Shown one piece after another: positions 3 through 28,119 of a stretch of DNA of 38,044 nucleotides (the first letter of the stretch is position 1; every line of letters begins with the position of its first letter). The position numbers and the translations under genes were made by a program. The notes beneath the pieces were generated by a model. It ran no database searches and was not told where the DNA came from. It worked only from the letters and a program-made list of their open reading frames with translations. Source of the DNA: a virus. The stretch lies in the IMG/VR virus record IMGVR_UViG_3300046004_000780, positions 1 to 38,044 of that record, one strand, 5' to 3'.

Positions 3-173
3 CCTGAAAAAAGAAAATATGAGCGGTTTCCTCCAGATGATGATTGTGATGTTTGGATGGTTCGCCGCGAAAAGGCGTGCTTTGTATATAGAGAGCTTTA
101 CATTCACTTCATGCAACCCGCATTGATGAACAGAAAAATAACCATTGATAGACTCATGGCTAATGACTTTTAA
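3..173 (+). CDS. C-terminal part of a small unknown protein (5' end outside the window)
   Basis: An open frame with no start codon enters from the left edge and encodes 56 residues, ending at a TAA that overlaps the next gene by 11 bases. The composition is ordinary for a soluble protein (KYERFPPDDDCDVW, then a basic stretch). The frame matches the frame leaving the right edge of the window at 37843-38044, so the two may be halves of one gene of about 124 codons on a circular molecule. I do not recognise a family. Confidence 0.5.
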   Translation, partial: PEKRKYERFPPDDDCDVWMVRREKACFVYRELYIHFMQPALMNRKITIDRLMANDF

Positions 174-432
174 AACGCGACCACAACTGGCAAAAAAGCA
201 CGGCTTAACAATGGGGGAGTTAAATTCTAGGATGAAAAATTCATGGGCAGACTTTCCCGCACCCGCTCATAAAATCGGCACAGTTACTTATTATGATGAA
301 ACAGAAGCAGATTTTTATATCATCAATAAGCTAGAAATAAGGCAAAGACTGTTAAAACAAAAGTTAGCCGCTAACTCAACGCCTGAAACTTATTTTGGTG
401 GGCAGAAGTTTTTAAAAGTATTTATTCGCTGA
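163..432 (+). CDS. Small phage protein of unknown function
   Basis: Encodes 89 residues starting MTFKTRPQLAKKHG. A longer frame begins at a TTG at 145. The ATG at 163 is preferred because it overlaps the stop of the preceding frame (TAA at 171-173), as expected for translational coupling. The N-terminus could be a short helix-turn-helix-like segment (QLAKKHGLTMGELNSRM), but that is weak evidence. It is the second gene of a rightward operon of small genes. No family is recognised. Confidence 0.55.
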   Translation: MTFKTRPQLAKKHGLTMGELNSRMKNSWADFPAPAHKIGTVTYYDETEADFYIINKLEIRQRLLKQKLAANSTPETYFGGQKFLKVFIR

Positions 433-443
433 GGTGGTTGTAA

Positions 444-803
444 ATGGCTTGGGCTGATATTGAAAAAAGAAAAGCGTATTACGCTAATAATAAAGAAAAG
501 ATGAAAGAGTATGACAAAAAATGGCGCGCTGATAATCCAGAAAAGGTTACGGAGCGGCGCAAGCAATACACTATCGACAACAAAGAAAAGATTAGTGAGG
601 TGGCAAAGCAATGGCGCGTTGATAATCCAGAAAAGGCTAGAGAAATATCAAATCAGCATTCTCGTCGATATAATGATGAATTAACATCTTCTAGTGTAGC
701 TAGAAGATTAGGTTTAAACCTAAAAACCGCACCAAAAGAACTAATTGAACTTAAACGACTTCAACTTTTAATAACTAGAGAAATAAGGGCTAAAAAATGT
801 TAA
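444..803 (+). CDS. Lysine-rich repeat protein of unknown function
   Basis: Encodes 119 residues, very rich in Lys, Glu and Asn. Repeated units of the type WRxDNPEK are visible at about residues 27-35 and 57-65, with a related DNKEKI unit between them. The repeat is visible in DNA as two 25-bp near-identical copies 90 bp apart. Similar 'NPEK' arrays occur in phage and HNH-associated proteins as charged, probably helical, nucleic-acid-binding regions; no HNH catalytic motif is present. GAGGTGG lies about 6 bases before the ATG. It overlaps the next gene by 7 bases. Confidence 0.6.
   Translation: MAWADIEKRKAYYANNKEKMKEYDKKWRADNPEKVTERRKQYTIDNKEKISEVAKQWRVDNPEKAREISNQHSRRYNDELTSSSVARRLGLNLKTAPKELIELKRLQLLITREIRAKKC
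521..635 (+). repeat. Pair of 25-bp direct repeats inside the Lys-rich gene
   Basis: Bases 521-545 and 611-635 differ at one position (GCGCGC versus GCGCGT) and are exactly 90 bp apart, so the reading frame is kept. They encode the WRxDNPEK units of the surrounding gene and probably arose by internal duplication. Confidence 0.8.
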
Positions 804-985
804 CAATTACTGAATTAAGAACTGATCTTTTAAAAGTCTACAAAGAACTAAGAAGCGGTGAACTAGAAGCAAAAGATGCAAAGCAGATCAATAACACCGC
901 CGGAAAAGTTATTGCAAGCGCGAAAGTCCAACTGGAATATGCGGTTTCTAGGGGCGAAAAGCCAGACATAGATTTTTTGCAATAA
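797..985 (+). CDS. Small helical phage protein of unknown function
   Basis: Encodes 62 residues (MLTITELRTDLLKVYKELR...), predicted mainly helical. The ATG overlaps the stop of the upstream gene and is preceded by AGGGCTAAAAA, a variant of the GGGCTAAC element found before several other starts in this genome. Short proteins of this kind (one helix, then a K/Q/N-rich turn and an AKVQLEY helix) are common in phage early regions, but their function is unknown to me. Confidence 0.6.
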   Translation: MLTITELRTDLLKVYKELRSGELEAKDAKQINNTAGKVIASAKVQLEYAVSRGEKPDIDFLQ

Positions 986-1009
986 ATTAAAATCACTGGA
1001 TCTTCTTAA

Positions 1010-1438
1010 ATGGGCTTTACCACTGACTTAAGGCTTGGTGAAGAAATTGAAGAAAAACTGCTGGCGGTTATTCGCAAGAAACACCCGTCGGCGGTCAAGA
1101 TCCCGAAAAAGTTTTCTGCCTATGATATTTTTATTCCTGAGAACGGAAAAAAGATTGAAGTTAAATATGATAAAAAAAGCAATGAAACGGGTAATATTGT
1201 TATTGAAATAGAAATGTTTGGTAAGCCAAGTGGATTAATGGCGACCGAAGCCGATTGGTGGGTATTCTACGACGACAATGATTTTATGGCGATCTCGCCC
1301 AAAGATATAACCTATTTTCTGTTTATCAATCGCCTGATCCATACAGAGTTTGTTGGGTCAGGCGACAACCAAAAGAAAAAGGCTTTCTTAGTTCCAAAAG
1401 ATAAGCTATTTAAATCCTGCATAAGATTTCAAGCCTGA
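1010..1438 (+). CDS. PD-(D/E)XK nuclease-like protein
   Basis: Encodes 142 residues. An N-terminal helix with acidic residues (LGEEIEEKL, 9-17) is followed by a core with D39 in YDIFIP and E50-V-K52 in KIEVKYD, separated by a short hairpin. This is the layout of PD-(D/E)XK nucleases, with D39/E50/K52 as the metal and catalytic triad and an acidic residue from helix 1. The size fits Holliday-junction-resolvase-like or restriction-endonuclease-like small phage enzymes. It is the last gene of the rightward operon, ending two bases before a convergent leftward gene. The fold assignment rests on motif only. The substrate is unknown. Confidence 0.5.
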   Translation: MGFTTDLRLGEEIEEKLLAVIRKKHPSAVKIPKKFSAYDIFIPENGKKIEVKYDKKSNETGNIVIEIEMFGKPSGLMATEADWWVFYDDNDFMAISPKDITYFLFINRLIHTEFVGSGDNQKKKAFLVPKDKLFKSCIRFQA

Positions 1439-1439
1439 T

Positions 1440-1670
1440 TTACTTACCCACCGGAATAATAACGACCTTTGTATTTGTACTTTTCTTGCTAACATCCATG
1501 TTATAGATCTTAACTGCTGGTTTGTTTGGGGTATGAACCTCGACAAAACTGCCGAAGTTATACGCCCTCACTCCGCCCGTGCAATTAGTCATGTTGCCAA
1601 CCACGACGCACGAATCAGCAAAAATAGAGGTTGAAACTAGAATCAATCCCAATAAAATATAATTTTTCAT
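1440..1670 (-). CDS. Small secreted protein, possible lysogenic-conversion factor
   Basis: Encodes 76 residues when started at the ATG that overlaps the upstream stop as ATGA; the frame also opens two codons earlier at a TTG. The N-terminus is a signal peptide: MKN, a hydrophobic core YILLGLILVSTSI, then a likely cut after FA-D. The mature part (about 58 residues) has two Cys in DSCVVVGNMTNC and looks beta-rich. There is no lipobox. It has no recognisable phage structural role. On the integrated map it would sit near the prophage edge, so export of a host-modifying protein is a reasonable inference, not a demonstrated function. Confidence 0.55.
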   Translation of the reverse strand: MKNYILLGLILVSTSIFADSCVVVGNMTNCTGGVRAYNFGSFVEVHTPNKPAVKIYNMDVSKKSTNTKVVIIPVGK

Positions 1671-1870
1671 AAACAATTCAATCCTGTTGCTTGGTCTATT
1701 AGTTTTTGAATTTCGGTATTTATTACATTCTTTAAGGTAGAGAATTGTAAATCATTAACTCCAACACCCGCCTTGTAGCCGTCATACATTCCATCAACAA
1801 CTTTTAATATTTCACGACAGTGCATTGCGGTAAGTTCTGAAATTAGTTTAGCTTTAGTTTCTGCGCTCAT
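1667..1870 (-). CDS. Small protein of unknown function
   Basis: Encodes 67 residues (MSAETKAKLISELTAMHC...), predicted helical. The start is preceded by a run of A, then GGGCTAACAA, the recurrent start-proximal element. It overlaps the downstream secreted-protein gene by 4 bases, so the two are probably co-translated. No family is recognised. Confidence 0.55.
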   Translation of the reverse strand: MSAETKAKLISELTAMHCREILKVVDGMYDGYKAGVGVNDLQFSTLKNVINTEIQKLIDQATGLNCL

Positions 1871-1950: not shown

Positions 1951-2121
1951 TTACCTGATAACGCTTTTATCTCTAAATTTCGCGGCTCGAGCCTTGTTCA
2001 GACATTTAGTGCAGACTGTTTTTTTAATCAGTCCGGTAAACTCAGATCCACAAAGCGTGCATTTTTTTGTTTCAGTCTTACGAAACGACGCAAGAGCCGC
2101 GCCATGATTAATTGGTTCCAT
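1951..2121 (-). CDS. Small zinc-finger protein
   Basis: Encodes 56 residues from MEPINHGAALASF. The frame opens eight codons earlier, but this ATG has GGGGAA five to six bases upstream and is preferred. CTLCGSEF and CTKCLNKA form a CxxC-x12-CxxC treble-clef or ribbon-type zinc site, followed by a basic tail (KARAAKFRDKSVIR). It is likely a DNA-binding or adaptor protein. It lies in the leftward accessory operon behind the 153-aa gene. Confidence 0.6.
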   Translation of the reverse strand: MEPINHGAALASFRKTETKKCTLCGSEFTGLIKKTVCTKCLNKARAAKFRDKSVIR

Positions 2122-2162
2122 CTTATTCCCCAAATAAAGCCACATCCTTGTGGCGGTGATTA

Positions 2163-2624
2163 TTATTTAATTTTTACAAGAACCCGATTATGTAGGCATT
2201 GAATATCCCCGCCCGCCACTATCACCTGTATTTCAATTCTTTTTTGTCCGGCATCAGTTTGGAAAAACCAAGTTCCCTCGAATCCGCCCTGCTTATATTG
2301 TTCAACTCCGTCAATGATTTCTTTAACGCCTGAGTCAGCAAGTTTTTTAGCGATTTTCGCGTTTCGCTCAGAAGTCTTTTTTTCATGGTTTTTAGTTAAG
2401 ACCTCAAATAAGCCATTATTTCCATAACATCTTAAAAGCTCATACCAGCCTTTGCCGCCGCACAAACTAAACATCTTTTGATAATCCCAACCGCCAAAAG
2501 GTTTGGTATCTTGGTAAGCTCGAACCGCCTTTCTTCTAGCGGGTATGCTTTCAATAATGCTATTTAACTCTGCATCATCAAACTCTTTTAAGACTGCTTC
2601 AATTTTTTCTATAAATGTAATCAT
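2163..2624 (-). CDS. Phage accessory protein of unknown function
   Basis: Encodes 153 residues (MITFIEKIEAVLKEFDDAEL...). The N-terminal third is helical; then comes a Gly/Trp/Tyr-rich part (FGGWDYQKMF, GGKGWYELLRCYG) and a beta-rich C-terminus (RIEIQVIVAGG). The start is preceded by GAAAGGGGCTAACGAA, the best copy of the start-proximal element. It is the first gene of the leftward operon reading away from attP. No family is recognised. Confidence 0.55.
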   Translation of the reverse strand: MITFIEKIEAVLKEFDDAELNSIIESIPARRKAVRAYQDTKPFGGWDYQKMFSLCGGKGWYELLRCYGNNGLFEVLTKNHEKKTSERNAKIAKKLADSGVKEIIDGVEQYKQGGFEGTWFFQTDAGQKRIEIQVIVAGGDIQCLHNRVLVKIK

Positions 2625-2768: not shown

Positions 2769-2791
2769 AAAGGCACCACAAAAGGCACCAC
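2769..2791 (+). repeat. attP left arm: two copies of AAAGGCACCAC
   Basis: Copies at 2769-2779 and 2781-2791 are identical and 12 bp apart. The same pair recurs at 3032-3054 in the same orientation, on the other side of the tRNA-like core. Paired short direct repeats flanking a core are the hallmark of arm-type integrase binding sites in attP. Confidence 0.75.
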
Positions 2792-2798
2792 GCATAAA

Positions 2799-2830
2799 AA
2801 AGGCTTAGATGAATTAACGTCTAAGCCTTT
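2799..2830 (-). terminator. Rho-independent terminator carried next to the att core
   Basis: AAAGGCTTAGA (2799-2809) and TCTAAGCCTTT (2820-2830) are a perfect 11-bp inverted repeat with a 10-base loop. Read leftwards it ends in six or more T (complement of the A-run at 2796-2801). It lies just downstream of the 3' end of the tRNA fragment, so after integration it would terminate the rebuilt tRNA-Thr gene. It could also act in the other direction. Confidence 0.8.
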
Positions 2831-2838
2831 GATTTATT

Positions 2839-2890
2839 TGGAGCTAGTGAGGGGATTCGAACTCCTGACCGGCTGATTACAAATCAGCCT
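2839..2890 (-). other. att core: 3' half of tRNA-Thr(TGT), partial
   Basis: Read on the minus strand, this holds a full anticodon arm (GCTGA TTTGTAA TCAGC, anticodon TGT), variable loop, a T arm with TTCGAAT, the 3' acceptor strand CACTAGC, discriminator T and encoded CCA. Upstream of the anticodon arm the sequence is AT-rich and lacks the D arm and 5' acceptor strand, so this is not a complete tRNA gene. Tyrosine-integrase phages carry such 3' halves to restore the host tRNA after integration. It predicts attB in a host tRNA-Thr(TGT) gene. Confidence 0.85.
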
Positions 2891-3031
2891 ATATATAGTT
2901 ACAAGGCTTTCATCCGTATTCACTCTTGTTTCACTTTAGTACCAAAATCGTTTAAAATCAACGCGCTTAGTGTATCAAAAAGTTTCATTGTATGCTACTT
3001 TGCTCAAAACAGCATGATTAAGACCGCAACA

Positions 3032-3054
3032 AAAGGCACCACAAAAGGCACCAC
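3032..3054 (+). repeat. attP right arm: two copies of AAAGGCACCAC
   Basis: Identical copies at 3032-3042 and 3044-3054, 12 bp apart, end about 20 bp before the integrase ATG. They match the left-arm pair. The overlap with the integrase leader suggests the integrase can bind its own promoter or leader region. Confidence 0.75.
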
Positions 3055-3075
3055 AAATTAAAAGGGCTAACGAAA

Positions 3076-4281
3076 ATGAAGTTTACAGATAACTGGCTAA
3101 AAGGTTTAAAACCTTTAGCGGCATCCTATCGAATTAATGAATCTGGAGCAGACAAAGGTTTTGGCGTTAAAGTCATTCCATCCGGAAGCGTGTCATTTTA
3201 TATTCAATACTCAACTGATAAAAAGAAACGCTTTTTTAATTTAGGTAAATATCCATCAACCACACTTGCCGATGCAAGAGAAAAATGCCGTGCTACTAGA
3301 GTTTTAATTGACACCGGAACAGATCCACAAAAACAAGAAATAAACACAACAGGCACTTGTCTTGAGTTGTTTGCTTATTATATAGACGGAATGAAACAGG
3401 ATGGTAAGCGAACATGGCACGATGTTGAAGTAACGCTTATGACAAACTGCCAAGATCTTCTTGCTATAAATGCTTGCGATGTTACGCCCTCACATATAAA
3501 AAAAATATTGCACGCGGTTATTCAGCGCGGTTCATTAGTTCAATCAAATCGGCTGAGATCTTATTTGCGACGCGCTTTTGAAGTCGGTATTTTTCATGAT
3601 AACTCACCTTTTCAAATGGAGTCATTGACCCTCTACAACATCACGACCAACCCAGTTGTTGCCGTTCCAAATAATACTGCCGCCGAAAGCGTAGGTGAGC
3701 GTGTACTCTCATTCGATGAATTAGCAATGCTCTGGAACTATACTGGCAATAACTTAACCTATTCCGTTGCTATAGCATTAAAGCTCATTATTGCTTTTGG
3801 GGGTATGAGAACGGGCGAAGTAACGCGCGCATTGATTGACGAGTTTGATTTTGAAGCGATGGTTTGGTCAATGCCTCCTGATCGAACCAAAACGGGCAAG
3901 GTCACTGGTCGCTGGCATCTTTTACCGATCACCGAATTATGCAGTTATCTAATAAAAAGCCAGATGGCTTTGTATAACGACACGCCCTGCTTGTTCCCTA
4001 ATAAGTGGGGTCATGAGCGACCCCAATCAGATACGGCGCTTAGTCATGTCGTTAAAAAGTTCTGCCTGTTAGAAAACTTTGAACCATTCACAGCAAAAGA
4101 TCTACGCCGAACCGTTAAAACAAGAATGGGCGAGCTAGGTATAAAAAAATCAATTCGGGATAGGATACAAAATCATGCGCTAACGGATGTAAGCTCAAAG
4201 CATTATGATCGCTGGGATTATATGCCGGAAAAAAAGGAAGTGCTCGATCTCTGGGCTAAAACCTTAATGAATCTTAAATAG
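3076..4281 (+). CDS. int: Tyrosine-recombinase integrase
   Basis: Encodes 401 residues. The N-terminal arm-binding domain (DUF4102 type, residues 1-90; GFGVKVIPSGSVSFYIQY) is followed by a core-binding SAM-like domain (about 100-190) and a catalytic domain. Catalytic residues visible: R245 (GMRTGEV), R344 (KDLRRT), H367 (QNHAL) and the nucleophile Y377 (SKHYDRWDY). The first His of the HxxR box is K341, a substitution I believe occurs in this integrase subfamily. It integrates and excises phage DNA at attP/tRNA-Thr. AAAGGGCTAACG precedes the ATG. It is convergent with and overlaps the tail gene D by 8 bases, with no terminator between them. Confidence 0.95.
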   Translation: MKFTDNWLKGLKPLAASYRINESGADKGFGVKVIPSGSVSFYIQYSTDKKKRFFNLGKYPSTTLADAREKCRATRVLIDTGTDPQKQEINTTGTCLELFAYYIDGMKQDGKRTWHDVEVTLMTNCQDLLAINACDVTPSHIKKILHAVIQRGSLVQSNRLRSYLRRAFEVGIFHDNSPFQMESLTLYNITTNPVVAVPNNTAAESVGERVLSFDELAMLWNYTGNNLTYSVAIALKLIIAFGGMRTGEVTRALIDEFDFEAMVWSMPPDRTKTGKVTGRWHLLPITELCSYLIKSQMALYNDTPCLFPNKWGHERPQSDTALSHVVKKFCLLENFEPFTAKDLRRTVKTRMGELGIKKSIRDRIQNHALTDVSSKHYDRWDYMPEKKEVLDLWAKTLMNLK

Positions 4282-5443
4282 TGTCGGCAATATCATCAGC
4301 GCCCTCTATATTTTCAACTGAATCAAAATCAGCTGGTACTGCAATCTCCGCCTCAACTGTACAAGTGTAACCTCCAGATCCGAGGTTATGCACAACGCTT
4401 GTAATAATCCAGTCGCCATTCACGCCATCACGAAAGTCGGCTGTAGTCATCATAACTTCCGCCGCCAGCTCAGGATGTCCGGGCATTGTAAGGGTGAGTT
4501 TAGCTTTTTGACGCGCCCTGCGTGACAGTTCCGCCTTTGCCGCCGCTATTGCAGTTGCCTGATCGGTAAATTGAGTTTTAATAGATGTTTCAGGATCTCC
4601 ATTGCCAACGGTGACAGCATGATTGGTGGTATATGCCGCTGGCGCATAAAAGACGGGCTTAATTTCTGTCTTTTTATCGCTTGATTTAACGCTTGATTTT
4701 TTGTGCTTAACTTTAATGTGATGGCGTTTAGCGGTATCGATATTATGCCAATAGACCCGAACGGTTCCAGACTCCTCACGCTTTGCTAATACTACATGAT
4801 AGCTAGTAACATCCGACGGCACGACTCGTAATTTAAAGTCCTTGCCGCTCATGGTTTTGCCCTCGGCTTTTTTTGCAACGATCAATTTCCCCGCCGCAAC
4901 TTTTACCGCTCCATCAAATCGCCGACAAATCCTAAGCAAAAAATGCAGATCCGATTCATCAACCTGATAAACGCCGTGCACGATTAAATTTTGTATTGAT
5001 TTTGAAACGACGGCTTCAAGTCCATGCTCTTTAGCGATGGTTTTAACCATAGTGGTTAGTGTGCTTTCATTCCAGCGACGATTTTTTTGTGTTTGTAATT
5101 GTGACTCACCACCTTTGCTGGCGTCAAACGTCGCAGATCTAGCGCGAACTATAATAGTTTCGGGATAACCCTCTAGCTCCACTTCATCAACTACAAACTT
5201 GCCCATGTACTGGGTCACGTTGTCATAGCCCAAATGCAACATGAGTTCAGCGCCAGTTTGAGGCATTGCAATTCTTTCGTCGGGTTTTCCGTCGCTGATA
5301 TGGATTTCTAGCTTATCAGACGCTAACCCCGCCGCATCGGTATAGCTAAGGCTGATAAGCCTTTCTTCAAGTTTTTTTGATATGTCATTTCCATTTGCTT
5401 CAATGATCCATTGAGGCTGGCGACCAACCTTGCTTAATCCCAT
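4274..5443 (-). CDS. D: Baseplate hub / late control protein, P2 gpD type
   Basis: Encodes 389 residues. The N-terminus (WIIEANGNDISKKLEERLIS) and the following beta-rich domain with VTQYMGKFVVDEVELEG match the phage late-control-D family, related to T4 gp27 and the N-terminal part of VgrG. In P2-like phages gpD forms the hub on which the spike gpV sits. Lys-rich linker at about 245-260 (KVKHKKSSVKSSDKK). It is the last gene of the tail operon after X, as in P2. Confidence 0.9.
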   Translation of the reverse strand: MGLSKVGRQPQWIIEANGNDISKKLEERLISLSYTDAAGLASDKLEIHISDGKPDERIAMPQTGAELMLHLGYDNVTQYMGKFVVDEVELEGYPETIIVRARSATFDASKGGESQLQTQKNRRWNESTLTTMVKTIAKEHGLEAVVSKSIQNLIVHGVYQVDESDLHFLLRICRRFDGAVKVAAGKLIVAKKAEGKTMSGKDFKLRVVPSDVTSYHVVLAKREESGTVRVYWHNIDTAKRHHIKVKHKKSSVKSSDKKTEIKPVFYAPAAYTTNHAVTVGNGDPETSIKTQFTDQATAIAAAKAELSRRARQKAKLTLTMPGHPELAAEVMMTTADFRDGVNGDWIITSVVHNLGSGGYTCTVEAEIAVPADFDSVENIEGADDIADTI

Positions 5444-5646
5444 AATTTAATGCCAGCGGCTTTAGATTGGCTGGTAAAATCAGGCAAATTAATAACGACG
5501 CCATAAGGGTAAGTAGCTCCAAGATCCGCAAGATTTGGGTTAGCTAAAAAAACTTGCTCAACAACGCCATTTTCAACACTGCCGTAATATTTCCAAGCAA
5601 TATAGTCGAGCGTGTCGCCCTCTCTAGTCGTGTAAGTAGTAGCCAT
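5434..5646 (-). CDS. X: Tail protein X, LysM-like
   Basis: Encodes 70 residues, the usual size for gpX. The LysM-type pattern is clear: YTTREGDTLDYIAWKYYGS at the start, then VFLANPNLADLG and a hydrophobic GVVINLPDF. In P2-like tails gpX is a baseplate or tail protein, possibly contacting peptidoglycan. It overlaps D by 10 bases and abuts U by one base, so it is translationally coupled in the U-X-D order typical of P2. Confidence 0.9.
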   Translation of the reverse strand: MATTYTTREGDTLDYIAWKYYGSVENGVVEQVFLANPNLADLGATYPYGVVINLPDFTSQSKAAGIKLWD

Positions 5647-6179
5647 TAAAACATTCCTTTTACGGCGGCAATCAGCTGGTCGTAACCGTCACCGACTGAG
5701 AAATTGCGTAGAGTTAAGTTGAACTCGATCTTTTTAGCGACGCCAAAAGCGGCAAATACAGTATGAGTTTCTTCGATGGTTTCAATCACATACTCGCCTA
5801 AAATTCCGCCAGCAACCGTAATCATCATTTGTGGCACACCTGACGCGGCAAGCACTCTTAACTTATCAATCTGCCCCGTTCCGCCTTTATACTCTGGATA
5901 AATAACACCAGCCAGTGTGATAGTTTCCGGTCCACTCCCGCAATACTGCAAAACCTCATGCGCGCCGAAAACCTCCTGCGCTGACCATCGGTAAGTATTG
6001 TTTCTTTTAAAATCCTGATAAGCCGCCGTGTTGAGCGAGAATAAAAAATCGCCCAACATTAGTTGCGGTATGTAGCCAGTTAATGAATCAAGGAACGATG
6101 CAACGCCATTAATCGCCGAAGTAGGAACGCTTTGCGCTTTACTCGCTATGCCGTCAAATAGATCACCCATGCCAGCCAT
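5646..6179 (-). CDS. U: Tail protein U
   Basis: Encodes 177 residues. The central region (LMLGDFLFSLNTAAYQDF, RWSAQEVFG, ETITLAGVIYPEYKG, GVPQMMITV, GEYVIETIEETHTVF, KIEFNLTLRNF) matches P2 gpU. Compared with P2 gpU (about 160 residues) there is an extra 25-30-residue N-terminus. It lies between tape measure T and X with one-base overlaps. Confidence 0.9.
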   Translation of the reverse strand: MAGMGDLFDGIASKAQSVPTSAINGVASFLDSLTGYIPQLMLGDFLFSLNTAAYQDFKRNNTYRWSAQEVFGAHEVLQYCGSGPETITLAGVIYPEYKGGTGQIDKLRVLAASGVPQMMITVAGGILGEYVIETIEETHTVFAAFGVAKKIEFNLTLRNFSVGDGYDQLIAAVKGMF

Positions 6180-8176
6180 TAGTAAGCCCCTGCCATCGCG
6201 GAGTCGTACATGTTACTGCGCTTATCAGCCTTGTCGTTATGCTTCATCTTTTTGACGATCCGGTTAGCTAAATCTTCAGAATTTTCCCCAGCGTTTTGAG
6301 TGATCTTAATATCGTTGTTTACGACGCTTGATTGATTCCCTGAACGACTAGGCACTGTGGGTGGCGCGGGCGGAGTAGGCGCAGATTGAGCGGCAGTAGC
6401 AGATCCACCAAAAGAAAAAGCAGATTTTATGGATGGATCAGGCGCAGATTGAGTGGCAGTAGCAGGCGCAGACTGAGCGGCAGGCGCAGATCCACCGAAT
6501 GAAAAAGCAGACTTGACCGACGCCCACGCATTACCGATGGTTTGTACTTTCGACATTATCCAAGTTTCAGCTTTGGTAATCGTCGCAAGCATATCGCTCC
6601 ACAACGATTGCCACCATGCTTTAATAGGTTCCCAGTTTTGATAGATCAAAGCCGCCGCCGCCGCAAGCACTCCAATCACCAATCCAATAGGGTTGGTCAT
6701 CATTGCAATTTTCATCGCGTTGAAAGCAAAAGTAACTGCACCGATTCCAAAACTGACTGCCTGAGATCCAGCGTATAATCCACCCAACGTAGCGGCAACA
6801 GCAATCACATTGCCGACTAAAGTTTGATGCTCTCGAACAAAATCAGCGATGCTTGACGTTGCACTAGCGAAAGATCCCATAACCCTATTAACGGCGGGTA
6901 AAAGTACCGAGCCAATATTAACGCCGACCTCAACCAATCTATTTTTAGTGATCTCAAACTGTGCCGAAGTCGTCGCAAGAGTCGCCGCAAATTCCCGACC
7001 CATTGACCCCTCAGCTTTTTGACTGTTCGCCATTTCGATTTGCTTTCGATACTCGCCCAAATTGCCAGCCAGCTTTGCAATCGTGTCAGAATGTTCAAGC
7101 CCGACCATCTCAACCAGCACGCCAGTGCGTTTTGCTTTGGGCAGTTTATTGATCGCGTCCATCACTTTCAATATTGTGCCTTGCGAATCTATCTGCATGC
7201 CTTTCTGAACCGCCGCAGTTGATAATCCGATTTCAGCCATCGCTGATTTAAACTTTTTAGTACCTTTATCCGCCGCCGCGAATTTCTGGAATAGCGCGTT
7301 GGTGGCGGTACTGGCAGTTTCTGATCGCTCACCTAAACTTAGTAGAGTTGAGCCAAGTGCCGCCATTTCTTTACCCGTTACTTTAACAGATCCAGCAACA
7401 CCACCCGTGCGAGTTAGGAAGTCAATGATGTCAGCGCCTTTTGAAATAGCGTTGTCATCAAGGTAATTGATAGCATCAGCCAAACCGCCAATGTTGGGTA
7501 TAGGTATTTTAAATAGGTTAGCGATTTTACCCATTTGATCCGCGAGTTCGCCAGCGGGTAAATCAAACGCCGACGCCATCATGCCAGCCGTGCGGGTAAA
7601 TCCTATTAACTCATTCTTAGCGATGCCCATACGAGCGCCCGCCGCCGCCATGTCGGCAATTTCGTTGGTAGCTATCGGCATTTCACGCCCAAGCAGTTGA
7701 ATCTGCTTCGACATTTCATAATAAACATTGGTGAGTTTACCGCTTGAATCGCGCGCACCATCAACTTGCTTTGCAACACCCAGCATAGCTTTTTCAAATG
7801 CCGCCGCCTGAATGATCGGCACAAAAGCAGTCGCCGCAACCGCCGCCGTCGCACCAATCGCAACACCAGCAGAAGCCATCCGACTTGCCCCTGCCTCTTT
7901 TCCAGAATGTGCTTTAGCTAATCGTTGTTGAGCCGCCCTTGCCTTTTCAATCTCAGCAGTAACGCTGGCGTATTTAGCGCGCAAGCCATCAACATTCTTG
8001 CCCATCGCGCCGAACGTTTGTATGCCTTTTCCAAGCAAACTTTGTTCGCGCTCCAGAGTTCGAATAGCCGAGCCAATTTCTTTTAATTTATCGCGGGTAG
8101 ATCCGAGGGCGCTTTTAAGAGAGCTGGCAACAGCGCCGCCGATAGTGATAGTTGCGTTTAATTTTTGATTAGCCAT
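6179..8176 (-). CDS. T: Tail tape measure protein, P2 gpT type
   Basis: Encodes 665 residues. The frame opens ten codons earlier, but MANQKLNATITIGG is preferred: GAGGGGCTACCGAAGA lies just upstream and the E' stop overlaps here. Coiled coil at about 20-100 is followed by a hydrophobic segment (GVAIGATAAVAATAFVP), the conserved TMP core with alternating GxAAxxAAAARMGI and LSLGERSETASTA-type motifs, and hydrophobic segments near 435-510. The C-terminus contains a duplicated SAFSFGGSAxAAQSAP linker rich in Ala, Pro and Ser. It sets tail length; 665 residues implies a short-to-medium contractile tail. Confidence 0.92.
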   Translation of the reverse strand: MANQKLNATITIGGAVASSLKSALGSTRDKLKEIGSAIRTLEREQSLLGKGIQTFGAMGKNVDGLRAKYASVTAEIEKARAAQQRLAKAHSGKEAGASRMASAGVAIGATAAVAATAFVPIIQAAAFEKAMLGVAKQVDGARDSSGKLTNVYYEMSKQIQLLGREMPIATNEIADMAAAGARMGIAKNELIGFTRTAGMMASAFDLPAGELADQMGKIANLFKIPIPNIGGLADAINYLDDNAISKGADIIDFLTRTGGVAGSVKVTGKEMAALGSTLLSLGERSETASTATNALFQKFAAADKGTKKFKSAMAEIGLSTAAVQKGMQIDSQGTILKVMDAINKLPKAKRTGVLVEMVGLEHSDTIAKLAGNLGEYRKQIEMANSQKAEGSMGREFAATLATTSAQFEITKNRLVEVGVNIGSVLLPAVNRVMGSFASATSSIADFVREHQTLVGNVIAVAATLGGLYAGSQAVSFGIGAVTFAFNAMKIAMMTNPIGLVIGVLAAAAALIYQNWEPIKAWWQSLWSDMLATITKAETWIMSKVQTIGNAWASVKSAFSFGGSAPAAQSAPATATQSAPDPSIKSAFSFGGSATAAQSAPTPPAPPTVPSRSGNQSSVVNNDIKITQNAGENSEDLANRIVKKMKHNDKADKRSNMYDSAMAGAY

Positions 8177-8557
8177 TCTTCGGTAGCCCCTCGATCCACC
8201 ACACAAAAACGCTTGAGCGCATTGCTGTTAATTCACTAAGACCCCATCCTGTGTGCGAAGCTAATGCAAGACACCCCTGCCGGATGTAATCGGGGGTCAG
8301 GTAATAAAATTTATAAATGCTTCTTGTAGCTTCTTATAATCTTTTAGCGTTAATTTTTTTAAATCATCGATTGAAACTTGGCATAAATTCGCCATTGTGA
8401 TTAGCTCTTTTGCAGAGTCGCTACCTTTGTACTCATCAGCAAGTAATTGATCAGCGACGGTAGGTTCTCTAACTCTAAGCACTTTCATAGGCGTGCCATC
8501 AACATCAATAGCGCGGTTCAACGTTACATCAATAAAGCCAGTTTCTATATTTGCCAT
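8169..8557 (-). CDS. E-E' fusion made by -1 ribosomal frameshift
   Basis: The -1 frame stays open from inside E through to a TAA at 8171-8169, overlapping the start of T. At 8312-8306 (minus strand) the codons are A AAT TTT, a canonical X-XXY-YYZ heptamer placed four codons before the E stop. After slippage the protein continues YYLTPDYIRQGCLALAS and ends WWIEGLPKNG, giving a tail of about 45 residues. Its Trp-rich style, including LSELTAM, fits gpE' proteins. P2 makes gpE+E' in the same way at the same gene position. The extension is not seen if only ATG-initiated frames are searched. Confidence 0.75.
8297..8557 (-). CDS. E: Tail assembly chaperone gpE (zero-frame product)
   Basis: Encodes 86 residues from MANIETGFIDVTLN. 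The frame opens earlier, but this ATG has ACAGGT upstream and matches family N-termini. The protein belongs to the E/41/14 tail-assembly chaperone family (DVTLNRAIDVDGTPMKVLRVREPTVADQL, quoted loosely). It binds the tape measure before tube assembly. It lies between tube FII and tape measure T. Its last codons contain a slippery site producing E-E'. Confidence 0.85.
   Translation of the reverse strand: MANIETGFIDVTLNRAIDVDGTPMKVLRVREPTVADQLLADEYKGSDSAKELITMANLCQVSIDDLKKLTLKDYKKLQEAFINFIT
8306..8312 (-). promoter_or_regulatory. Slippery heptamer AAATTTT for -1 frameshifting
   Basis: In the E frame it reads A AAT TTT, allowing tandem slippage into the -1 frame. The E stop is at 8299-8297. A C/G-rich stretch follows (ACCTGACCCCCG), which may support pausing. 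Confidence 0.65.
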
Positions 8558-8610
8558 AAAATACCTGTAAAAAAGCGCACACAGCAAAAGCCATGCGCGC
8601 TATTTGTTTA

Positions 8611-9117
8611 TTAAATACCTAGCGCGCTTCTCATGCCCGCAAGAACATCCGTGCCATTAATCGACTGAATCATGTTTTGCACATCGATTTCTTGCAACTC
8701 TTTGTCGCCATGTTGAAGCTTGTAATAATTAAGAGCCATAGCCACTTTCAATGATGCAATTTCTCCCGCTTTCGATGTACCCGCGTCGATTGATTTAATC
8801 TTGCCGCGCATAGTATGAATAACAGTAGTAATTGTTCCGTCGAATGACTCCAACCCTTCACGAGCAACAAAAGAAATATTTTGCCCCTCAGATACACCGA
8901 ACATTGAAAGCACGTCTGAGTCATAGCTAATTAAGCTAAAATCACTTTCTAACTTTTCCATGCCCATTGAAATTTCGATTGGCGCAGACATACCGCCAGC
9001 CCTAAATTCTTCAGTGACCAAAGTTAGTTTAGGTGGGTTAAATTCCTGTATTTGTCCGGCATAACCTCGACCATCGACAAACAAGTTAATATTTTTACGA
9101 ACGTTGCGAGCCGCCAT
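8611..9117 (-). CDS. FII: Major tail tube protein
   Basis: Encodes 168 residues, the P2 gpFII size (172). Family features: RKNINLFVDGRGYAGQIQEF at the N-terminus, EEFRAGGMSAPIEISMGMEKLE, RGKIKSIDAGTSKAGE, then LNYYKLQHGDKELQEID near the C-terminus. It forms the inner tube of the contractile tail. It abuts FI by one base (9117). Confidence 0.93.
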   Translation of the reverse strand: MAARNVRKNINLFVDGRGYAGQIQEFNPPKLTLVTEEFRAGGMSAPIEISMGMEKLESDFSLISYDSDVLSMFGVSEGQNISFVAREGLESFDGTITTVIHTMRGKIKSIDAGTSKAGEIASLKVAMALNYYKLQHGDKELQEIDVQNMIQSINGTDVLAGMRSALGI

Positions 9118-10307
9118 TAGAAAATTTCCTTAATGTAATCATTCACAAGATGCGAACGGAAAGTAATATGTTCAGCAGGGTAAGGCGGAGTAAAGTCAAA
9201 ATCGAAATAGACTTTTCCAAGAGCAATCTGGCTAGGTGCGTTAAGGTCAGGGTCAGCCCAACATTTACCACCAAGAATTGCACCGATGCTGGTTAAATAA
9301 CGCAAGTAAGCATTAACGCTTTCAGTGACGTCCTGAACATAAGTTTTAGTAATGTTTCGATCAACCGCCCACATGTGCGCGCGTAACAATGAATCATTAA
9401 TTATGTCAGCAGTTCTTCTAACCGATAAAAAGATCCACTTAGTATCATCAGTTAAAGTTCTGTTACCCCATAGTCGGTAGCCATCATGTCGAATGATAGT
9501 AGCAATGCCAATTTCATTTAACAGATTAGCGCGGCTAGTAATGTCACCTAAAGCAAAATCAATGGGTCGACCAACGCCGATAATGCCATTAATATTTTGG
9601 TTAGATGGCGACCACCAGAAGCCCCGCTCATTATCAGATTTAGCAATCAAACCAGCAACGCAAGGTGAAGCAGGAACAGTAACAATTTCACCGACTGAAT
9701 TAGTCTTTTTAACCCACGGGTCAATCATGTAAACACGATTTGAGCCAAAATCACCCGCATAAGCCGTAGCTTGTGCATCTGTAGAGTTCGGTCCGTCGCA
9801 AATAATAACAGCGCGTAATTTTTCAGCGATTCCAATCAATTCAGCAACAACAGGGTTAGCCAAAGAGCTAGGGCGTTGATGGGTAAAGCTTGGAGCAATT
9901 AAGATTCTAGGGCAGAAGCCAAGTTTCGATTCAGCGCCCAAGAACGCTTGCACGCCCTCATAATCGCCCGTGCCAACATTCACGCCGCCAATAATATTAG
10001 CCATTGTCGATGCTTCTGTATCTTCCTCAGCAACACGAACAACAATAATAACAGCGCCCGCTTGGTCGAATATCGAATCAATCGCACTAGGTAAAGAGCC
10101 GTCGCTAATACCCGTATTAGCAAGCAATAGAGCGGCATCGCGCCTAGATCCAGCGATCAAGACAGGCGTGTTCAAAGGAAAGGCAGTTGCATCAGCGCGT
10201 GGTGCTGTGCCAATTAACCCGATAACAGCAGAGCGAACCGTCTGTATAGGGCGTGGTCCAGCGTCAATTTCTAAAACCTCAACGCCATGTAAAAAAGTTT
10301 CACTCAT
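9117..10307 (-). CDS. FI: Contractile tail sheath protein
   Basis: Encodes 396 residues, equal to the P2 gpFI size. The N-terminus (FLHGVEVLEIDAGPRPIQTV) and domain with IGLIGTAP are typical of sheath proteins. The C-terminal domain has YRLWGNRTL, IFLSVRRTADIINDSLL and KVYFDFDFTPPYPAEHI, the conserved sheath handshake region. It polymerises around the tube and contracts on infection, which identifies the phage as a myovirus type. Confidence 0.95.
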   Translation of the reverse strand: MSETFLHGVEVLEIDAGPRPIQTVRSAVIGLIGTAPRADATAFPLNTPVLIAGSRRDAALLLANTGISDGSLPSAIDSIFDQAGAVIIVVRVAEEDTEASTMANIIGGVNVGTGDYEGVQAFLGAESKLGFCPRILIAPSFTHQRPSSLANPVVAELIGIAEKLRAVIICDGPNSTDAQATAYAGDFGSNRVYMIDPWVKKTNSVGEIVTVPASPCVAGLIAKSDNERGFWWSPSNQNINGIIGVGRPIDFALGDITSRANLLNEIGIATIIRHDGYRLWGNRTLTDDTKWIFLSVRRTADIINDSLLRAHMWAVDRNITKTYVQDVTESVNAYLRYLTSIGAILGGKCWADPDLNAPSQIALGKVYFDFDFTPPYPAEHITFRSHLVNDYIKEIF

Positions 10308-10399
10308 GTTAATAAATCCTCTGTAGGGTTAACCGGATAACCGTAGCGTGCATAATGAGCATTTTTAAAATAATCATCCTCTTGCGGCTTTTCCATCAT
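10304..10399 (-). CDS. 31-residue overlapping small protein
   Basis: The only sizeable space between the Cys-rich gene and sheath FI holds an ATG frame of 31 codons (MMEKPQEDDYFKNAHYARYG, then YPVNPTEDLLT). Its ATG overlaps the upstream stop as ATGA, and its TGA overlaps the sheath ATG in the same way. Tight overlap on both sides fills the gap exactly and argues for real translation, either as a product or as a coupling device for sheath synthesis. It is too short for most gene finders. Confidence 0.55.
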   Translation of the reverse strand: MMEKPQEDDYFKNAHYARYGYPVNPTEDLLT

Positions 10400-10707
10400 C
10401 CTATTTTTTGAAGATCCGGCGAACCACTAACAGATGCCAATAAAATATGGTTACTGATCTCATTAGATTGCACCATCTCATTCCGAAACGACTCAACCGC
10501 CGCGCTGGTAGATCTTTGTTGCATAGAGTTTTCAACCAATAACATCGGTAGCCAAGACATAGCACAGCCGTGTTCATCAACTGACTCGCCCGTGTTTGGA
10601 TTAGTGCCCGCCAACTTTGTCCACCACGCACACCGATGTATAGCGCCGTCTTTTATTTCTTCGCACTTAGAGCCAAGCGGGCAAGTAACGACTGTTTTAA
10701 TTTCCAT
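10396..10707 (-). CDS. Cys-rich small protein between fibre and sheath
   Basis: Encodes 103 residues. The N-terminal half carries CPLGSKCEEIKDGAIHRCAWW (Cys spacing 5 and about 10) and a further Cys in HGCAMSWLPMLLVEN, giving four Cys that could bind metal. The C-terminal half is Ser/Gln-rich and helical. It occupies the place of the fibre assembly gene G in P2 but shows no resemblance to it. It overlaps the fibre gene by one base and the 31-aa ORF by four. Confidence 0.6.
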   Translation of the reverse strand: MEIKTVVTCPLGSKCEEIKDGAIHRCAWWTKLAGTNPNTGESVDEHGCAMSWLPMLLVENSMQQRSTSAAVESFRNEMVQSNEISNHILLASVSGSPDLQKIG

Positions 10708-11843
10708 TAGTTTTTAGCACAAATAATCATATCAATGTATTTTGGCGTCCAACTGACAGCGGCAGTTGAAGATATTGAGCCGGATGGTGTACCAGCGACA
10801 GTCGAGCCTATTGATCCGGCTGGAGTACCAGCGGCAGTTGAAGATATTGAGCCTGTAGGTGTGCCAGCCGAGTTAGATGATATATGTGCGAAGCCTGTAG
10901 ACACCACGCCCCCCGAGCTTTGTATATTGCTACCACCTGCATAGCTAAAATTAGCGCCACCACTTCCATGATTATGCCCAGAATCTGTATGTGTATGAGC
11001 GGTAAGAGCATTTCCAGTAAAAGCGTGAGTATGAGCCGCTAACGCGCTCCCCGTAAAAGCGTGAGTATGAGCCGCTAACGCGCTCCCCGTAAAAGCGTGC
11101 GTATGAGCCACCATTGTTTTGTCGTTCAAAACTGGCGAATCAGTACCGCCGCTTCCACCGCCCGCCGCATTGACCGCACGAAGCATGCAGTTATTAATGG
11201 TGATGTCTTGCGTCCAGCCAGTCGGCGCCGCCGCTTGAAAAAAAGCTATCTTTGTGCCGCTGGCGAAAACTGTATTAGCGCCATCTGCTATGCCATTAAG
11301 TTTGACCTTATCCTCCGCCGACAAGCTACCAGCGGCAGAAATAGTTGCGGCAGATATGCTTATTGCTGGCGCAGTTCCACCGGATGAAACAATAGGCGCT
11401 GTGCCTGTAACGCTCGTAATAGTTCCAGAGCCAACGGTAGCGCCATCTGCTATGCCGTTAAGTTTCACTTTATCCGCCGCACTCATAAAGCCATTAATCG
11501 TAGTGCTTACCGCGCCATGAGCCGCACCAGTTGAACCGACGTGAGCAATGGGGGCGGCATCGCTGGCAATTTCCGCATTAACAAAAGCGGTGGTAGCTAA
11601 CTGAGTGGTTGAGTTATTTACAGCGGCGGTTGGCGCGGTAGGTACACCCGTTAAAGCGGGCGATGCTTTAGGTGCATACGTTGATTCAATAATATCAACA
11701 TGATCTTTTAAGTATTTAGTCCGGTTTGCCAAGTTTTTAATGGGCGTGTTAGTAATACCAGACGCGCCACCAATAACAGGGTCAGTAAGTTCTATTTGAT
11801 AAACGCCCGCATCATAAGTTGATGTTTCAGTTAAATTTGCCAT
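10707..11843 (-). CDS. H: Tail fibre / collar-type receptor-binding protein
   Basis: Encodes 378 residues. N-terminus (VYQIELTDPVIGGASG) is a baseplate-attachment segment resembling phage fibre starts. It is followed by a TAFVNAEIASDAAPIAHVG shaft, two KVKLNGIADGA repeats, FFQAAAPTGWTQD (collar-like motif), then four AHTHAFTGxAL repeats whose HxH pairs bind metal in trimeric fibres, and a C-terminal series of TGSISSTAAGTP repeats ending in WTPKYIDMIICAKN. The C-terminal motif xxYIxMIxCxKN is typical of fibre tips. It is placed after gpI as in P2. The repeats make host-range variation by recombination likely. Confidence 0.88.
   Translation of the reverse strand: MANLTETSTYDAGVYQIELTDPVIGGASGITNTPIKNLANRTKYLKDHVDIIESTYAPKASPALTGVPTAPTAAVNNSTTQLATTAFVNAEIASDAAPIAHVGSTGAAHGAVSTTINGFMSAADKVKLNGIADGATVGSGTITSVTGTAPIVSSGGTAPAISISAATISAAGSLSAEDKVKLNGIADGANTVFASGTKIAFFQAAAPTGWTQDITINNCMLRAVNAAGGGSGGTDSPVLNDKTMVAHTHAFTGSALAAHTHAFTGSALAAHTHAFTGNALTAHTHTDSGHNHGSGGANFSYAGGSNIQSSGGVVSTGFAHISSNSAGTPTGSISSTAAGTPAGSIGSTVAGTPSGSISSTAAVSWTPKYIDMIICAKN
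10995..11110 (-). repeat. Tandem 36-bp repeats in the tail fibre gene
   Basis: Units reading GCTCATACTCACGCTTTTAC on the minus strand recur about every 36 bp and encode the AHTHAFTG blocks. The two central copies are nearly identical in DNA, so copy number could change by slippage or recombination without breaking the frame. Confidence 0.7.
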
Positions 11844-11846
11844 CGG

Positions 11847-12410
11847 TTAAGCGACTCCATGATTATAAGCACCGTTATAGGTAACTGCGCCGTTGAAAAG
11901 ATTACTGGCTTGAGTAAATACTAACTCGATTAAATGGCAACGAGCGGGCGCGGTGTAATCCAATATTCGCCGGATCTGCGCCGCTTGAGCATTGCTAATT
12001 GGTCGAGTAAGAAAAAAGCGATAACGCGCCCATTCAGTCGGGTCGCCGTAAGTTTTAAACCCATTATGGGTAAAAACGTTGTTATAAAAATTATTAGAGT
12101 TGCCCTCAAATAAAACGCTATCACCATAGCCCGCATCATTAATAGCTTGCTTAACTGACCAAACAGAGCCTTTTTTGCGCTGAATAGCGACGGCATTTTT
12201 AACGATGTTACGTTTAGTATCATCCGACCAGCCGTTGTCCCATTCATCAACACCAAGACCCCACGCCAACCAAGCAAGCAAGTGGTTTGGGCATAACTCT
12301 GGCGACCAAAGTTCACGAATAAGAATCGGCACGTCACCGACGCGGGAAGTTGCAAGATCCAGTGCGCGCTCTTGGTCAGTAGCGTTATAAGGCAATAATG
12401 AGCTATTCAT
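11847..12410 (-). CDS. I: Baseplate protein I
   Basis: Encodes 187 residues from MNSSLLPYNATDQERAL; an ATG three codons earlier is also possible, but GGAACTG precedes this one. P2 gpI features: RVGDVPILIRELWSPELCP, LLAWLAWGLGVDEWDNGWSDD, KGSVWSVKQAINDAGYGD. It connects the baseplate wedge to the fibre. It overlaps J by 8 bases, and the C-terminus (NGAVTYNGAYNHGVA) resembles a fibre-docking repeat. Confidence 0.92.
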   Translation of the reverse strand: MNSSLLPYNATDQERALDLATSRVGDVPILIRELWSPELCPNHLLAWLAWGLGVDEWDNGWSDDTKRNIVKNAVAIQRKKGSVWSVKQAINDAGYGDSVLFEGNSNNFYNNVFTHNGFKTYGDPTEWARYRFFLTRPISNAQAAQIRRILDYTAPARCHLIELVFTQASNLFNGAVTYNGAYNHGVA

Positions 12411-13302
12411 CAGTTCCATTGATTGACACGGTTATAGCTGTGCAGTTAGGCGCTTGATTCCACGCATTAACGATGGTTGCCGAGGGTGATGTAAGCGTAA
12501 CCACTTGCACGCCCGATTGATGTAATGCCGCATATACTCCAGATAGGGTTATGTCCCTGCCAATCTTGCTCATGTCACTAGCGTACTGAGTCGCCGCCGC
12601 AATCGACGCCGCAAGCACCTCAGCTTGACCCGTGCCGGGATACACTTTTAAAGTTGCCGTAATCGCGTAATTAACAATGGTTGCAGACGTCACTAAAACG
12701 GTGTCACATAAAGGGCGCACAACATCGCTATTTAATGCCGAAAGCACTTTAGCAATTAGCGGCGCGGATGCAGTACCCGTGCCAGTTCTGGATAACAAAG
12801 CGACATTAACTGTGCCAGCGGTTAGCGAGGTAACAGCAACGTCTTTTATGTCTGCGTCACTACTCAACGCGTGAAACATGTAAGAGCCGCGTGAGCCAGC
12901 AGTTGTATAACCCTCTAATGATAATAAAATCCTAATGCGAAAATCATCATCCGGCTCATAAACAGCATCAGTAGGTGGAATGGTCGTATCATTAGCGGGC
13001 GTAATTAATAACCGCAACACATCATAATTAGCGGCTATATTATCGAGGTCGCCACCAACGGCGAATGGCAACATAACCCCGTGCGCCGCGTCATTCACTC
13101 TTTGCCTAATTAGCGTTTCACGATACGCCGCCACCTCTAAAATCTTATAAGCAGGGTCAGACTCAACAAGCGCGGTAAATACAGGATCGCGTGCTTGAAG
13201 ATCCGCCAGCATTTCCGACAATATACGCTCGAAACTTAGCGTTTCAATGATTGCGGGTGCTGGCAATTCAGTTAAATTAACTGCGGTTAAATTAGAAGCC
13301 AT
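12403..13302 (-). CDS. J: Baseplate wedge protein J
   Basis: Encodes 299 residues, the usual gpJ size. Features: ERILSEMLADLQARDP, ESDPAYKILEVAAYRETLIRQRVNDAA, VGGDLDNIAANYDVLRL, then the RIRILLSLEGYTTAGSRGSYMFHA segment typical of the gpJ / Mu gp47 / T4 gp6 family. It overlaps W by one base and I by 8 bases, matching P2 order. Confidence 0.94.
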   Translation of the reverse strand: MASNLTAVNLTELPAPAIIETLSFERILSEMLADLQARDPVFTALVESDPAYKILEVAAYRETLIRQRVNDAAHGVMLPFAVGGDLDNIAANYDVLRLLITPANDTTIPPTDAVYEPDDDFRIRILLSLEGYTTAGSRGSYMFHALSSDADIKDVAVTSLTAGTVNVALLSRTGTGTASAPLIAKVLSALNSDVVRPLCDTVLVTSATIVNYAITATLKVYPGTGQAEVLAASIAAATQYASDMSKIGRDITLSGVYAALHQSGVQVVTLTSPSATIVNAWNQAPNCTAITVSINGTDE

Positions 13303-13640
13303 TAAGTAACCAATATCCCATCAAGAGTAATTTTTTTTCCGTCAGGCTTATAAATTCCTGTCAGATCCAGCACAACATAACCCGCACTAGCTTCGGCAAT
13401 CTTTACTTGCTGAACTGAAAAGCGGGGTTCCCATCGCGCTATTGCTTGAGCAGTAGCCGCGTAAAGCTCAAGAATAGTGGTGCGGTTTAGTGGCGCGTCA
13501 GTTAATTGAAATAATCTTGAGCCGTAATCTCTCCGCATCACGCGCGTGCCAATCGGGGTGGTCAAAATATCGCGTATAGATTGGCGTAAGTGGTCAATCT
13601 CACCTAATGACTTGCCAGTATTTGCATTAATTCCTATCAT
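13302..13640 (-). CDS. W: Baseplate protein W
   Basis: Encodes 112 residues from MIGINANTGKSLGEIDHLRQ; the open frame extends 32 codons further into V, but gpW and T4 gp25-like proteins start at this point. Conserved: LRQSIRDILTTPIGTRVMRRDYGSRLF and DAPLN. It is a lysozyme-like-fold wedge protein without lysozyme activity that triggers sheath assembly. AGGA lies about 12 bases upstream, a weak site, so a start slightly upstream is possible. Confidence 0.92.
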   Translation of the reverse strand: MIGINANTGKSLGEIDHLRQSIRDILTTPIGTRVMRRDYGSRLFQLTDAPLNRTTILELYAATAQAIARWEPRFSVQQVKIAEASAGYVVLDLTGIYKPDGKKITLDGILVT

Positions 13641-13695
13641 GTAGCCAATGATCCTAATAAGCGCATCAATGTTCCTCTTGCGGAGTTTCCTATTT

Positions 13696-14819: not shown

Positions 14820-14823
14820 TTTC

Positions 14824-15982: not shown

Positions 15983-16044
15983 GTTATTTTCTCCAAATGA
16001 TAAAAAAAGCCGGAACAAAGTCCGGCTTCATCTAAAGGTTAAAT

Positions 16045-17871: not shown

Positions 17872-17925
17872 GGTAACTATAAATATCAGTTGAATTGTCC
17901 ATGATTAATTTTGTTTGATTTACTT

Positions 17926-17952
17926 CAATGATTCCTCTTGCGTGTTTTCCTT
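17926..17952 (+). repeat. 27-bp exact direct repeat, copy 1
   Basis: Identical over 27 bases to 23994-24020 (core TTCCTCTTGCGTGTTTTCC). This copy is intergenic, touching the TAA of the fibre-associated frame at 17953-17951. The other copy is coding, inside the 3' end of the large terminase gene. The two bound a segment of about 6 kb with portal and fibre-like genes. Confidence 0.85.
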
Positions 17953-19960: not shown

Positions 19961-20003
19961 AAAAAGGCTCCCTTAAATTGCCAAAACTGGCAGGGTTAAA
20001 AAA

Positions 20004-23908: not shown

Positions 23909-23915
23909 TAAATAC

Positions 23916-28053: not shown

Positions 28054-28119
28054 TTGCTCATATTTCCTTAGATTTGACGATCCGAACTGGTAGTTTCAGC
28101 GCACGCACACACCAAATAA

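What the first reader, a model, noticed from the sequence alone, without database searches (positions are those of the whole stretch)
2769..3054. Intact attP with paired arm repeats on both sides of a tRNA-Thr 3' core
AAAGGCACCAC occurs twice on each side of the tRNA-derived core, always in the same orientation and 12 bp apart. An integrated prophage would have only one arm at each end. The phage also carries a terminator for the rebuilt tRNA. This predicts the exact insertion site and shows that genes left of the core are phage genes.
Basis: partly seen in the sequence, partly recalled or inferred. Interest (0 to 1): 0.55.

Follow-up and report, generated by a model that had tools for sequence, protein, structure and literature searches.

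The report
Methanotroph phage attP with switchable arms
A phage of methane-eating bacteria carries an intact landing site for inserting into a tRNA gene, and comparison with relatives suggests a simple rule by which one amino acid of the integrase goes with one base of its binding repeats.

Summary
Four exact AAAGGCACCAC copies lie in two pairs (2769/2781, 3032/3044; same strand; period 12) around 51 nt identical to the 3' end of tRNA-Thr(TGT) of Methylococcales methanotrophs. It is an attP: a related record (G004) is a circular permutation of this genome whose ends lie in the same core, and a host MAG carries one arm pair, a terminator and a complete tRNA-Thr. Genes left of the core are phage genes.

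Across the family, integrase residue 51 predicts one arm base: K/R goes with C, E with G, Q with G (arms like this phage's) or T (P4-type arms). Exploratory set: K/R-C 30 of 30, E/Q/V-G 47 of 47, with A-A and I-C once each. Fresh Methylococcales loci: 36 of 37 by tandem reading; the same loci gave 72 of 74 by a simpler count. A phylum-wide test gave 65 of 90 and shows a subfamily that breaks the rule. Direct contact is inferred. PDB 3rmp, whose paper I could not read, may already show part of it.

The parts
2769..2791 (+). left arm pair, 2 x AAAGGCACCAC, period 12
2793..2830 (-). stem-loop plus T run on the minus strand: terminator that the phage supplies for the rebuilt tRNA
   Evidence: stem 2799-2830 (listed on + only); T run read; hosts have similar stem-loops at the same place
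2838..2888 (-). core: 51 nt shared with Methylococcales tRNA-Thr(TGT); tRNA part 2839-2888
2873..2887 (-). anticodon stem-loop dyad CTGATTACAAATCAG, likely core-type sites and strand-exchange region (inferred)
   Evidence: sequence; position inferred
3032..3054 (+). right arm pair, 2 x AAAGGCACCAC, 22 nt before int
3076..4281 (+). tyrosine integrase, 401 aa; Arm-DNA-bind_3 (residues 4-87), Phage_integrase (211-368); residue 51 = K
145..1870 (.). six small phage ORFs left of attP with homologues in the G004 phage
1951..2624 (-). two small ORFs left of attP, no homologue in the records compared other than the same phage

Best explanation
This is the intact attP of a temperate tailed phage of Methylococcales methanotrophs. 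The integrase N-terminal domain binds the four arms, its core-binding and catalytic domains recombine the tRNA-Thr core, and integration leaves one arm pair at each end; the phage rebuilds the tRNA 3' half and gives it a new terminator. In this integrase family the arms and the arm-binding domain evolve together: residue 51, at the start of a beta strand of the arm domain, goes with one arm base (K/R with C, E with G, Q with T in P4-type arms and G in arms like this one). Shown: layout, core match, circular permutation, co-switch of all four arms in L004, statistical residue-base rule. Inferred: binding itself, intasome assembly, direct side-chain/base contact, and autoregulation of int from the right arms.
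For: Layout and core. Phage circle. Host attR. L004 co-switch: in each of the four arms the same two bases differ (4 of 23 positions in each pair), while the left flank differs at 8 of 128, the core at 1 of 51 and 2889-3031 at 10 of 143; 12 of 21 amino-acid differences lie in residues 1-56, hypergeometric p 2e-6, against 3 of 42 for L005, whose arms stay of the GGCACCAC type. Tandem arms upstream of int: 122 of 160 at score 8 or more, against 3.1% of resampled sequences. Exploratory rule: 77 of 77 for K, R, E, Q, V. Tree of the catalytic domains: 7 of 8 independent pairs go the same way, 0 the other way, p 0.0156. First hold-out: R-C 19 of 20, E-G 12 of 12, Q-T 5 of 5. Simpler count on the same loci: 72 of 74, residue-shuffled mean 30.9, maximum 45 of 10,000 shuffles. 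The first 14 disjoint closest pairs that differ at residue 51 all switch base as expected; the list was stopped at 14 and mixes exploratory and hold-out rows. Residue 51 has the highest z in both column scans.
Against: Phylum-wide test: only 65 of 90 (E-G 31 of 38, Q-T 19 of 26, R-C 15 of 26; shuffled mean 29.6, maximum 46). R followed by A/S/T/N gave C 1, T 7, G 2, A 2, so the rule fails in that subfamily; L403 in the first hold-out is of that type. Exceptions I51-C and A51-A. In one search residue 16 predicted the base slightly better by leave-one-out (0.93 against 0.90). Q means G in one arm type and T in the other. The tree of arm domains had only 2 supported pairs (p 0.5). Five hold-out loci with AC-type anchors (R-T 3, Q-C 1, E-A 1) do not fit as read. 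G004's two ends are an identical 77-nt repeat, which looks like an assembly break, so that record alone does not prove a linear integrated state. No binding data.
Confidence: 0.9

Rival explanations
1. The repeats are operator sites of another regulator of int, or an early promoter element, and not integrase arms.
For: The right pair lies 22 nt before int.
Against: Two pairs on both sides of a tRNA core; all four copies switch together with the integrase arm domain in L004; tandem repeats are general upstream of PF13356 integrases; in KplE1 the integrase arm sites themselves overlap the int promoter (PMC2951348, passages).
Confidence: 0.05
2. The residue 51 - base association is common descent or cassette exchange of arm domain plus neighbouring right arms, without direct readout.
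For: Right arms lie next to the arm-domain codons; divergence between window and L004 is high from 3055 to int residue 60; the arm-domain tree is poorly resolved.
Against: Left arms, some 240 nt away across conserved sequence, switch too; 7 of 8 independent pairs on the catalytic tree; pairs up to 83% identical outside residue 51 switch base; the pairings with the opposite-strand base (Arg-G, Glu-C, Gln-A) are chemically canonical (recalled knowledge).
Confidence: 0.2
3. Residue 51 is only one of several readers (16, 44, 51, 53), and the base is set by the whole strand pair.
For: Residue 16 and columns 44 and 53 also covary with the base; Q behaves differently in the two arm types; R51 fails when residue 52 is A/S/T/N.
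Against: Residue 51 has the highest z in both scans.
Confidence: 0.45

Closest known systems
KplE1/HK620-type attL-intS of E. coli K-12 (PMC2951348; passages seen)
   Same: tRNA core, PF13356-type integrase read by eye (DGKEKI), arm sites upstream of and overlapping the int promoter; arms there hold GGGTAAA, which fits E51-G
   Different: different tRNA (argW), different arm sequence and arrangement; autoregulation shown there, not tested here
P4-like / IntSXT subgroup integrases with DUF4102 arm domain; PDB 3jtz, 3ju0, 3rmp
   Same: arm domain alignable by sequence and fold (TM-score on the target 0.76 to 0.88)
   Different: those are pathogenicity-island or genomic-island integrases; 3rmp is titled as the structural basis of attP recognition by P4-like integrases, and I could not read its paper
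Lambda Int and attP
   Same: bivalent integrase, arms and core; best fold match over the whole chain (1z1b)
   Different: 17% identity; lambda arms and their number and spacing differ (recalled)
Prophage record G004 (IMG/VR UViG_2814122945_000003)
   Same: circular permutation of the same genome type, int 90% identical, same core, same arm type
   Different: one base differs in the second arm of each pair (AAACGGCACCAC)

Membership tests
lambda-type attP of a temperate phage | core shared with host attachment gene | tested here: met
   42 genome stretches, 33 with tRNA-Thr(TGT)
lambda-type attP of a temperate phage | integrase arm sites on both sides of the core in the free phage | tested here: met
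   two pairs on both sides in window, L004, L006; binding itself not tested
lambda-type attP of a temperate phage | only one arm side at each end after integration | tested here: met
   attR in host MAG L044; G004 ends fit but may be an assembly break; an attL with host DNA of the same insertion was not seen
lambda-type attP of a temperate phage | integrase binds the repeats | not testable with these tools
   needs footprinting
IntSXT / P4-like integrase (DUF4102) | N-terminal Arm-DNA-bind_3 domain | tested here: met
   PF13356 6.3e-16, 58.7 bits against cut-off 27
IntSXT / P4-like integrase (DUF4102) | tyrosine recombinase catalytic domain | tested here: met
   PF00589 6.9e-9, 36.1 bits against cut-off 27.1
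KplE1-type autoregulated integrase | int promoter overlapping arm sites, repression by Int | not tested
   geometry fits (right arms 22 nt before int); no promoter evidence: consensus scan 3 found, 3.1 expected
lambda-type intasome with IHF | IHF sites between arms and core | tested here: inconclusive
   consensus matches not above chance in the window (99 against 89.5)

The most novel reading that the evidence does not exclude
Arm-binding domains of the large P4-like/IntSXT integrase family read one base of their arm sites through a single residue (51 here): K/R reads G, E reads C and Q reads A on the opposite strand in P4-type arms. Phages can switch arm specificity by changing this residue and its neighbours together with all arm copies, as seen between the window phage and L004. 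This would let arm sites be predicted from integrase sequence over much of the family.
Probability: 0.55. Interest if true: 0.72.

Novelty: new member of a known kind. Interest (0 to 1): 0.55.

Why it matters
The attP itself is a well-resolved member of a known kind, and it ties an uncultivated phage to Methylococcales hosts and a defined tRNA site. The residue-base rule would matter more: PF13356 integrases were found in 253 of 311 Methylococcales genomes and 297 of 398 genomes sampled across the phylum over the family cut-off, and a rule that reads arm sites from protein sequence would help find att sites and real element ends, and would explain how neighbouring elements in one tRNA keep their integrases apart. 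The window/L004 pair is a ready natural experiment.

Tried and rejected
IHF consensus scan: not above chance. Promoter scan: at chance. Window DNA against named phages: only tail-gene similarity, 60-80% identity, 37 records. Window integrase in a class-wide sample with E 1e-40: 2 of 369 genomes, both already known. A relative scan with L107 found only itself. L044 host flank against the other host loci by blastn: no hit at 1e-10. IntF of K-12: no clear arms; IntA arms (TAGGCCCA) lack the anchor, so they were not scored. G004 was first taken as plain proof of integration; its exact 77-nt end repeat made me lower that. Rows dropped before counting: 64 with domain score under 60, 12 without repeat, 5 without anchor, of 160; 43 domain hits had too little upstream DNA. 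One search's count rule was made after seeing on the same 80 loci, so it is a re-reading and not a second independent test. The prediction written before one search covered K/R and E only; Q-T had been seen once (L140). Post hoc split by residue 52: 60 of 71 with K/R there.

Papers: PMC2951348 and PMC8138268, passages only; others only as search listings. Searches for a published recognition code; none of the listings showed one, but the library holds open-licence papers only.

Full report
1. The observation. Four exact copies of AAAGGCACCAC lie at 2769, 2781, 3032 and 3044, all on the + strand, none elsewhere in the window. The pairs have period 12 with a 1-nt spacer, and the two sides are a 37-nt direct repeat at 89% identity. 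Between them lies a 51-nt stretch (2838-2888) identical to the 3' end of tRNA-Thr(TGT) of methanotrophs. The window has no complete tRNA. On the minus strand a stem-loop (2799-2830) is followed by six T, just downstream of the tRNA 3' end. Hosts show similar stem-loops there.

2. What carries it. The window is an uncultivated virus record of 38,044 nt, classed linear. Tested proteins include phage capsid/prohead protease, lambda-type portal, GpA-type terminase, minor tail protein and baseplate hub, and RecT-like, exonuclease VIII-like, SSB and repressor families. The integrase (3076-4281, 401 aa) has Arm-DNA-bind_3 and Phage_integrase domains. Its model (mean pLDDT 87.9, pTM 0.53, 35 sequences) matches lambda Int best over the whole chain, and its arm domain matches PDB 3ju0, 3jtz and 3rmp.

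3. It is an attP. Relatives of the integrase were found in 5 viral records. G001 and G002 are the same phage (99.99% over 7,134 nt and 100% over 5,121 nt). G004 (38,422 nt, integrase 90%) is a circular permutation of the window: window 2809-18100, 19565-31285 and 31409-37901, then 1-635, 678-1889 and 2756-2885 follow in order along G004 (junction read). So the window is a free-form genome opened at an arbitrary place. A same-phage contig runs 29 nt past window position 1 through a C8 run, a likely assembly break. G004 begins and ends in the core. Its ends are an identical 77-nt repeat, which looks like a break of the assembly graph at the att site. This marks the site but does not by itself prove the integrated state. 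A cleaner integrated end is L044, a Methylococcaceae MAG contig: two AAAGTGACCAC copies, a terminator, then a complete tRNA-Thr, with RimK-like, DUF2817 and DUF3335 genes beyond. Of 10 host genomes searched for such arm pairs, only this one matched, once. No attL joined to host DNA of the same insertion was seen. Left of the core, 6 of 8 ORFs have G004 homologues in the same order, 48-100% identical.

4. The arms move together. In L004 (integrase 95% identical) all four arms are AAAGTGACCAC: two bases differ in each copy. Around them divergence is low (left flank 8 of 128, terminator 4 of 46, core 1 of 51, 2889-3031 10 of 143), but it is high just before int (14 of 21) and in codons 1-60 (41 of 180 nt). 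Of 21 amino-acid differences 12 are in residues 1-56 (p 2e-6). L005, 90% identical with arms of the window type, has 3 of 42 there. L006 (74%) has AAGGCACTA-type arms on both sides. The right side could have moved as one block with the arm domain; the left pair could not have moved in the same short block, because the sequence between is conserved.

5. A family-wide rule. I collected integrases with this domain and read the DNA upstream of the gene. Tandem repeats of period 10-14 are general: 66 of 97 regions against 1.7 in shuffles, and 122 of 160 at score 8 or more against 3.1% of resampled sequences. Many of these loci are close relatives, so they are not independent. In 79 rows with domain score 60 or more, a repeat and an AC[CT] anchor, the base before the anchor was C for K (22 of 22) and R (8 of 8), and G for E (30 of 30), Q (16 of 16) and V (1 of 1); A gave A and I gave C, once each. 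On a tree of catalytic domains 7 of 8 independent pairs agree, none goes the other way, p 0.0156. Among arm-domain columns residue 51 has the highest z (11.3) and residue 16 is next (7.2), though residue 16 predicts slightly better by leave-one-out (0.93 against 0.90; 29 representatives).

6. Hold-out tests. More distant integrases use arms of the type GGxGG(T/C)A. I wrote the prediction (R/K with x = C, E with x = G) into the notebook before fetching, then fetched 80 unread Methylococcales loci. Of 80, 35 had no repeat, 3 no anchor and 5 only an AC-type anchor (R-T 3, Q-C 1, E-A 1, which do not fit as read). The other 37 gave R-C 19 of 20, E-G 12 of 12 and Q-T 5 of 5. A simpler count on the same 80 gave 72 of 74 (shuffled mean 30.9, maximum 45). 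With that script fixed, 109 loci from a phylum-wide sample gave 65 of 90 (shuffled mean 29.6, maximum 46; 14 without class, 5 with other residues). R51 followed by K/R gave C in 14 of 14, but R51 followed by A/S/T/N gave C 1, T 7, G 2, A 2 (post hoc). So the rule is strong in the main group and fails in that subfamily. In E. coli K-12, IntS (E) has GGGTAAA arms and IntB (Q) TTGGTA/ATGGTA; the IntS arm sites were mapped experimentally and share TAAA (PMC2951348, passages).

7. Mechanism. Established knowledge: the arm domain binds arm sites, the rest binds and recombines the core. Here residue 51 lies at the start of a predicted strand (50-59). R/K, E and Q pair with G, C and A on the opposite strand in P4-type arms, the textbook side-chain preferences (recalled). 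I infer direct major-groove readout by residue 51 with help from neighbours (16, 44, 53). The right arms 22 nt before int suggest autoregulation as in KplE1; not tested.

8. Novelty and limits. The attP is a new member of a known kind. I found no published residue-base rule in eight listings, but the library is partial, and PDB 3rmp (title seen) concerns attP recognition by P4-like integrases. Nothing here measures binding.

Noticed in passing
L008, L016, L017, L018, L029, L030, L032, L043, L046: Copies of the tRNA-Thr core without the tRNA 5' half, several beside other PF13356-type integrases and other paired repeats (for example ACTGGGACTA twice): tRNA-Thr(TGT) of methanotrophs looks like a crowded insertion site.
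   Followed up: partly
window 1 and 38044: A same-phage contig (G001) continues 29 nt past window position 1 through a C8 run; the window seems to lack a short piece of the circle.
   Followed up: yes
L057, L058, L063: Integrases about 50% identical sit beside cores that look like tRNA-Asn and tRNA-Lys 3' ends (read by eye): target gene changes faster than the arm layout.
   Followed up: no
L004 against window, int codons 1-60: Local high divergence with conserved flanks suggests exchange of the arm-domain segment.
   Followed up: partly
window 489-549 and 579-639; 6374-6427 and 6461-6514: Two internal imperfect direct repeats, 82% and 87% identical.
   Followed up: no
L109: Four tandem arm copies (TTACCTGACCCA) instead of two upstream of int; L105 has three.
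   Followed up: no
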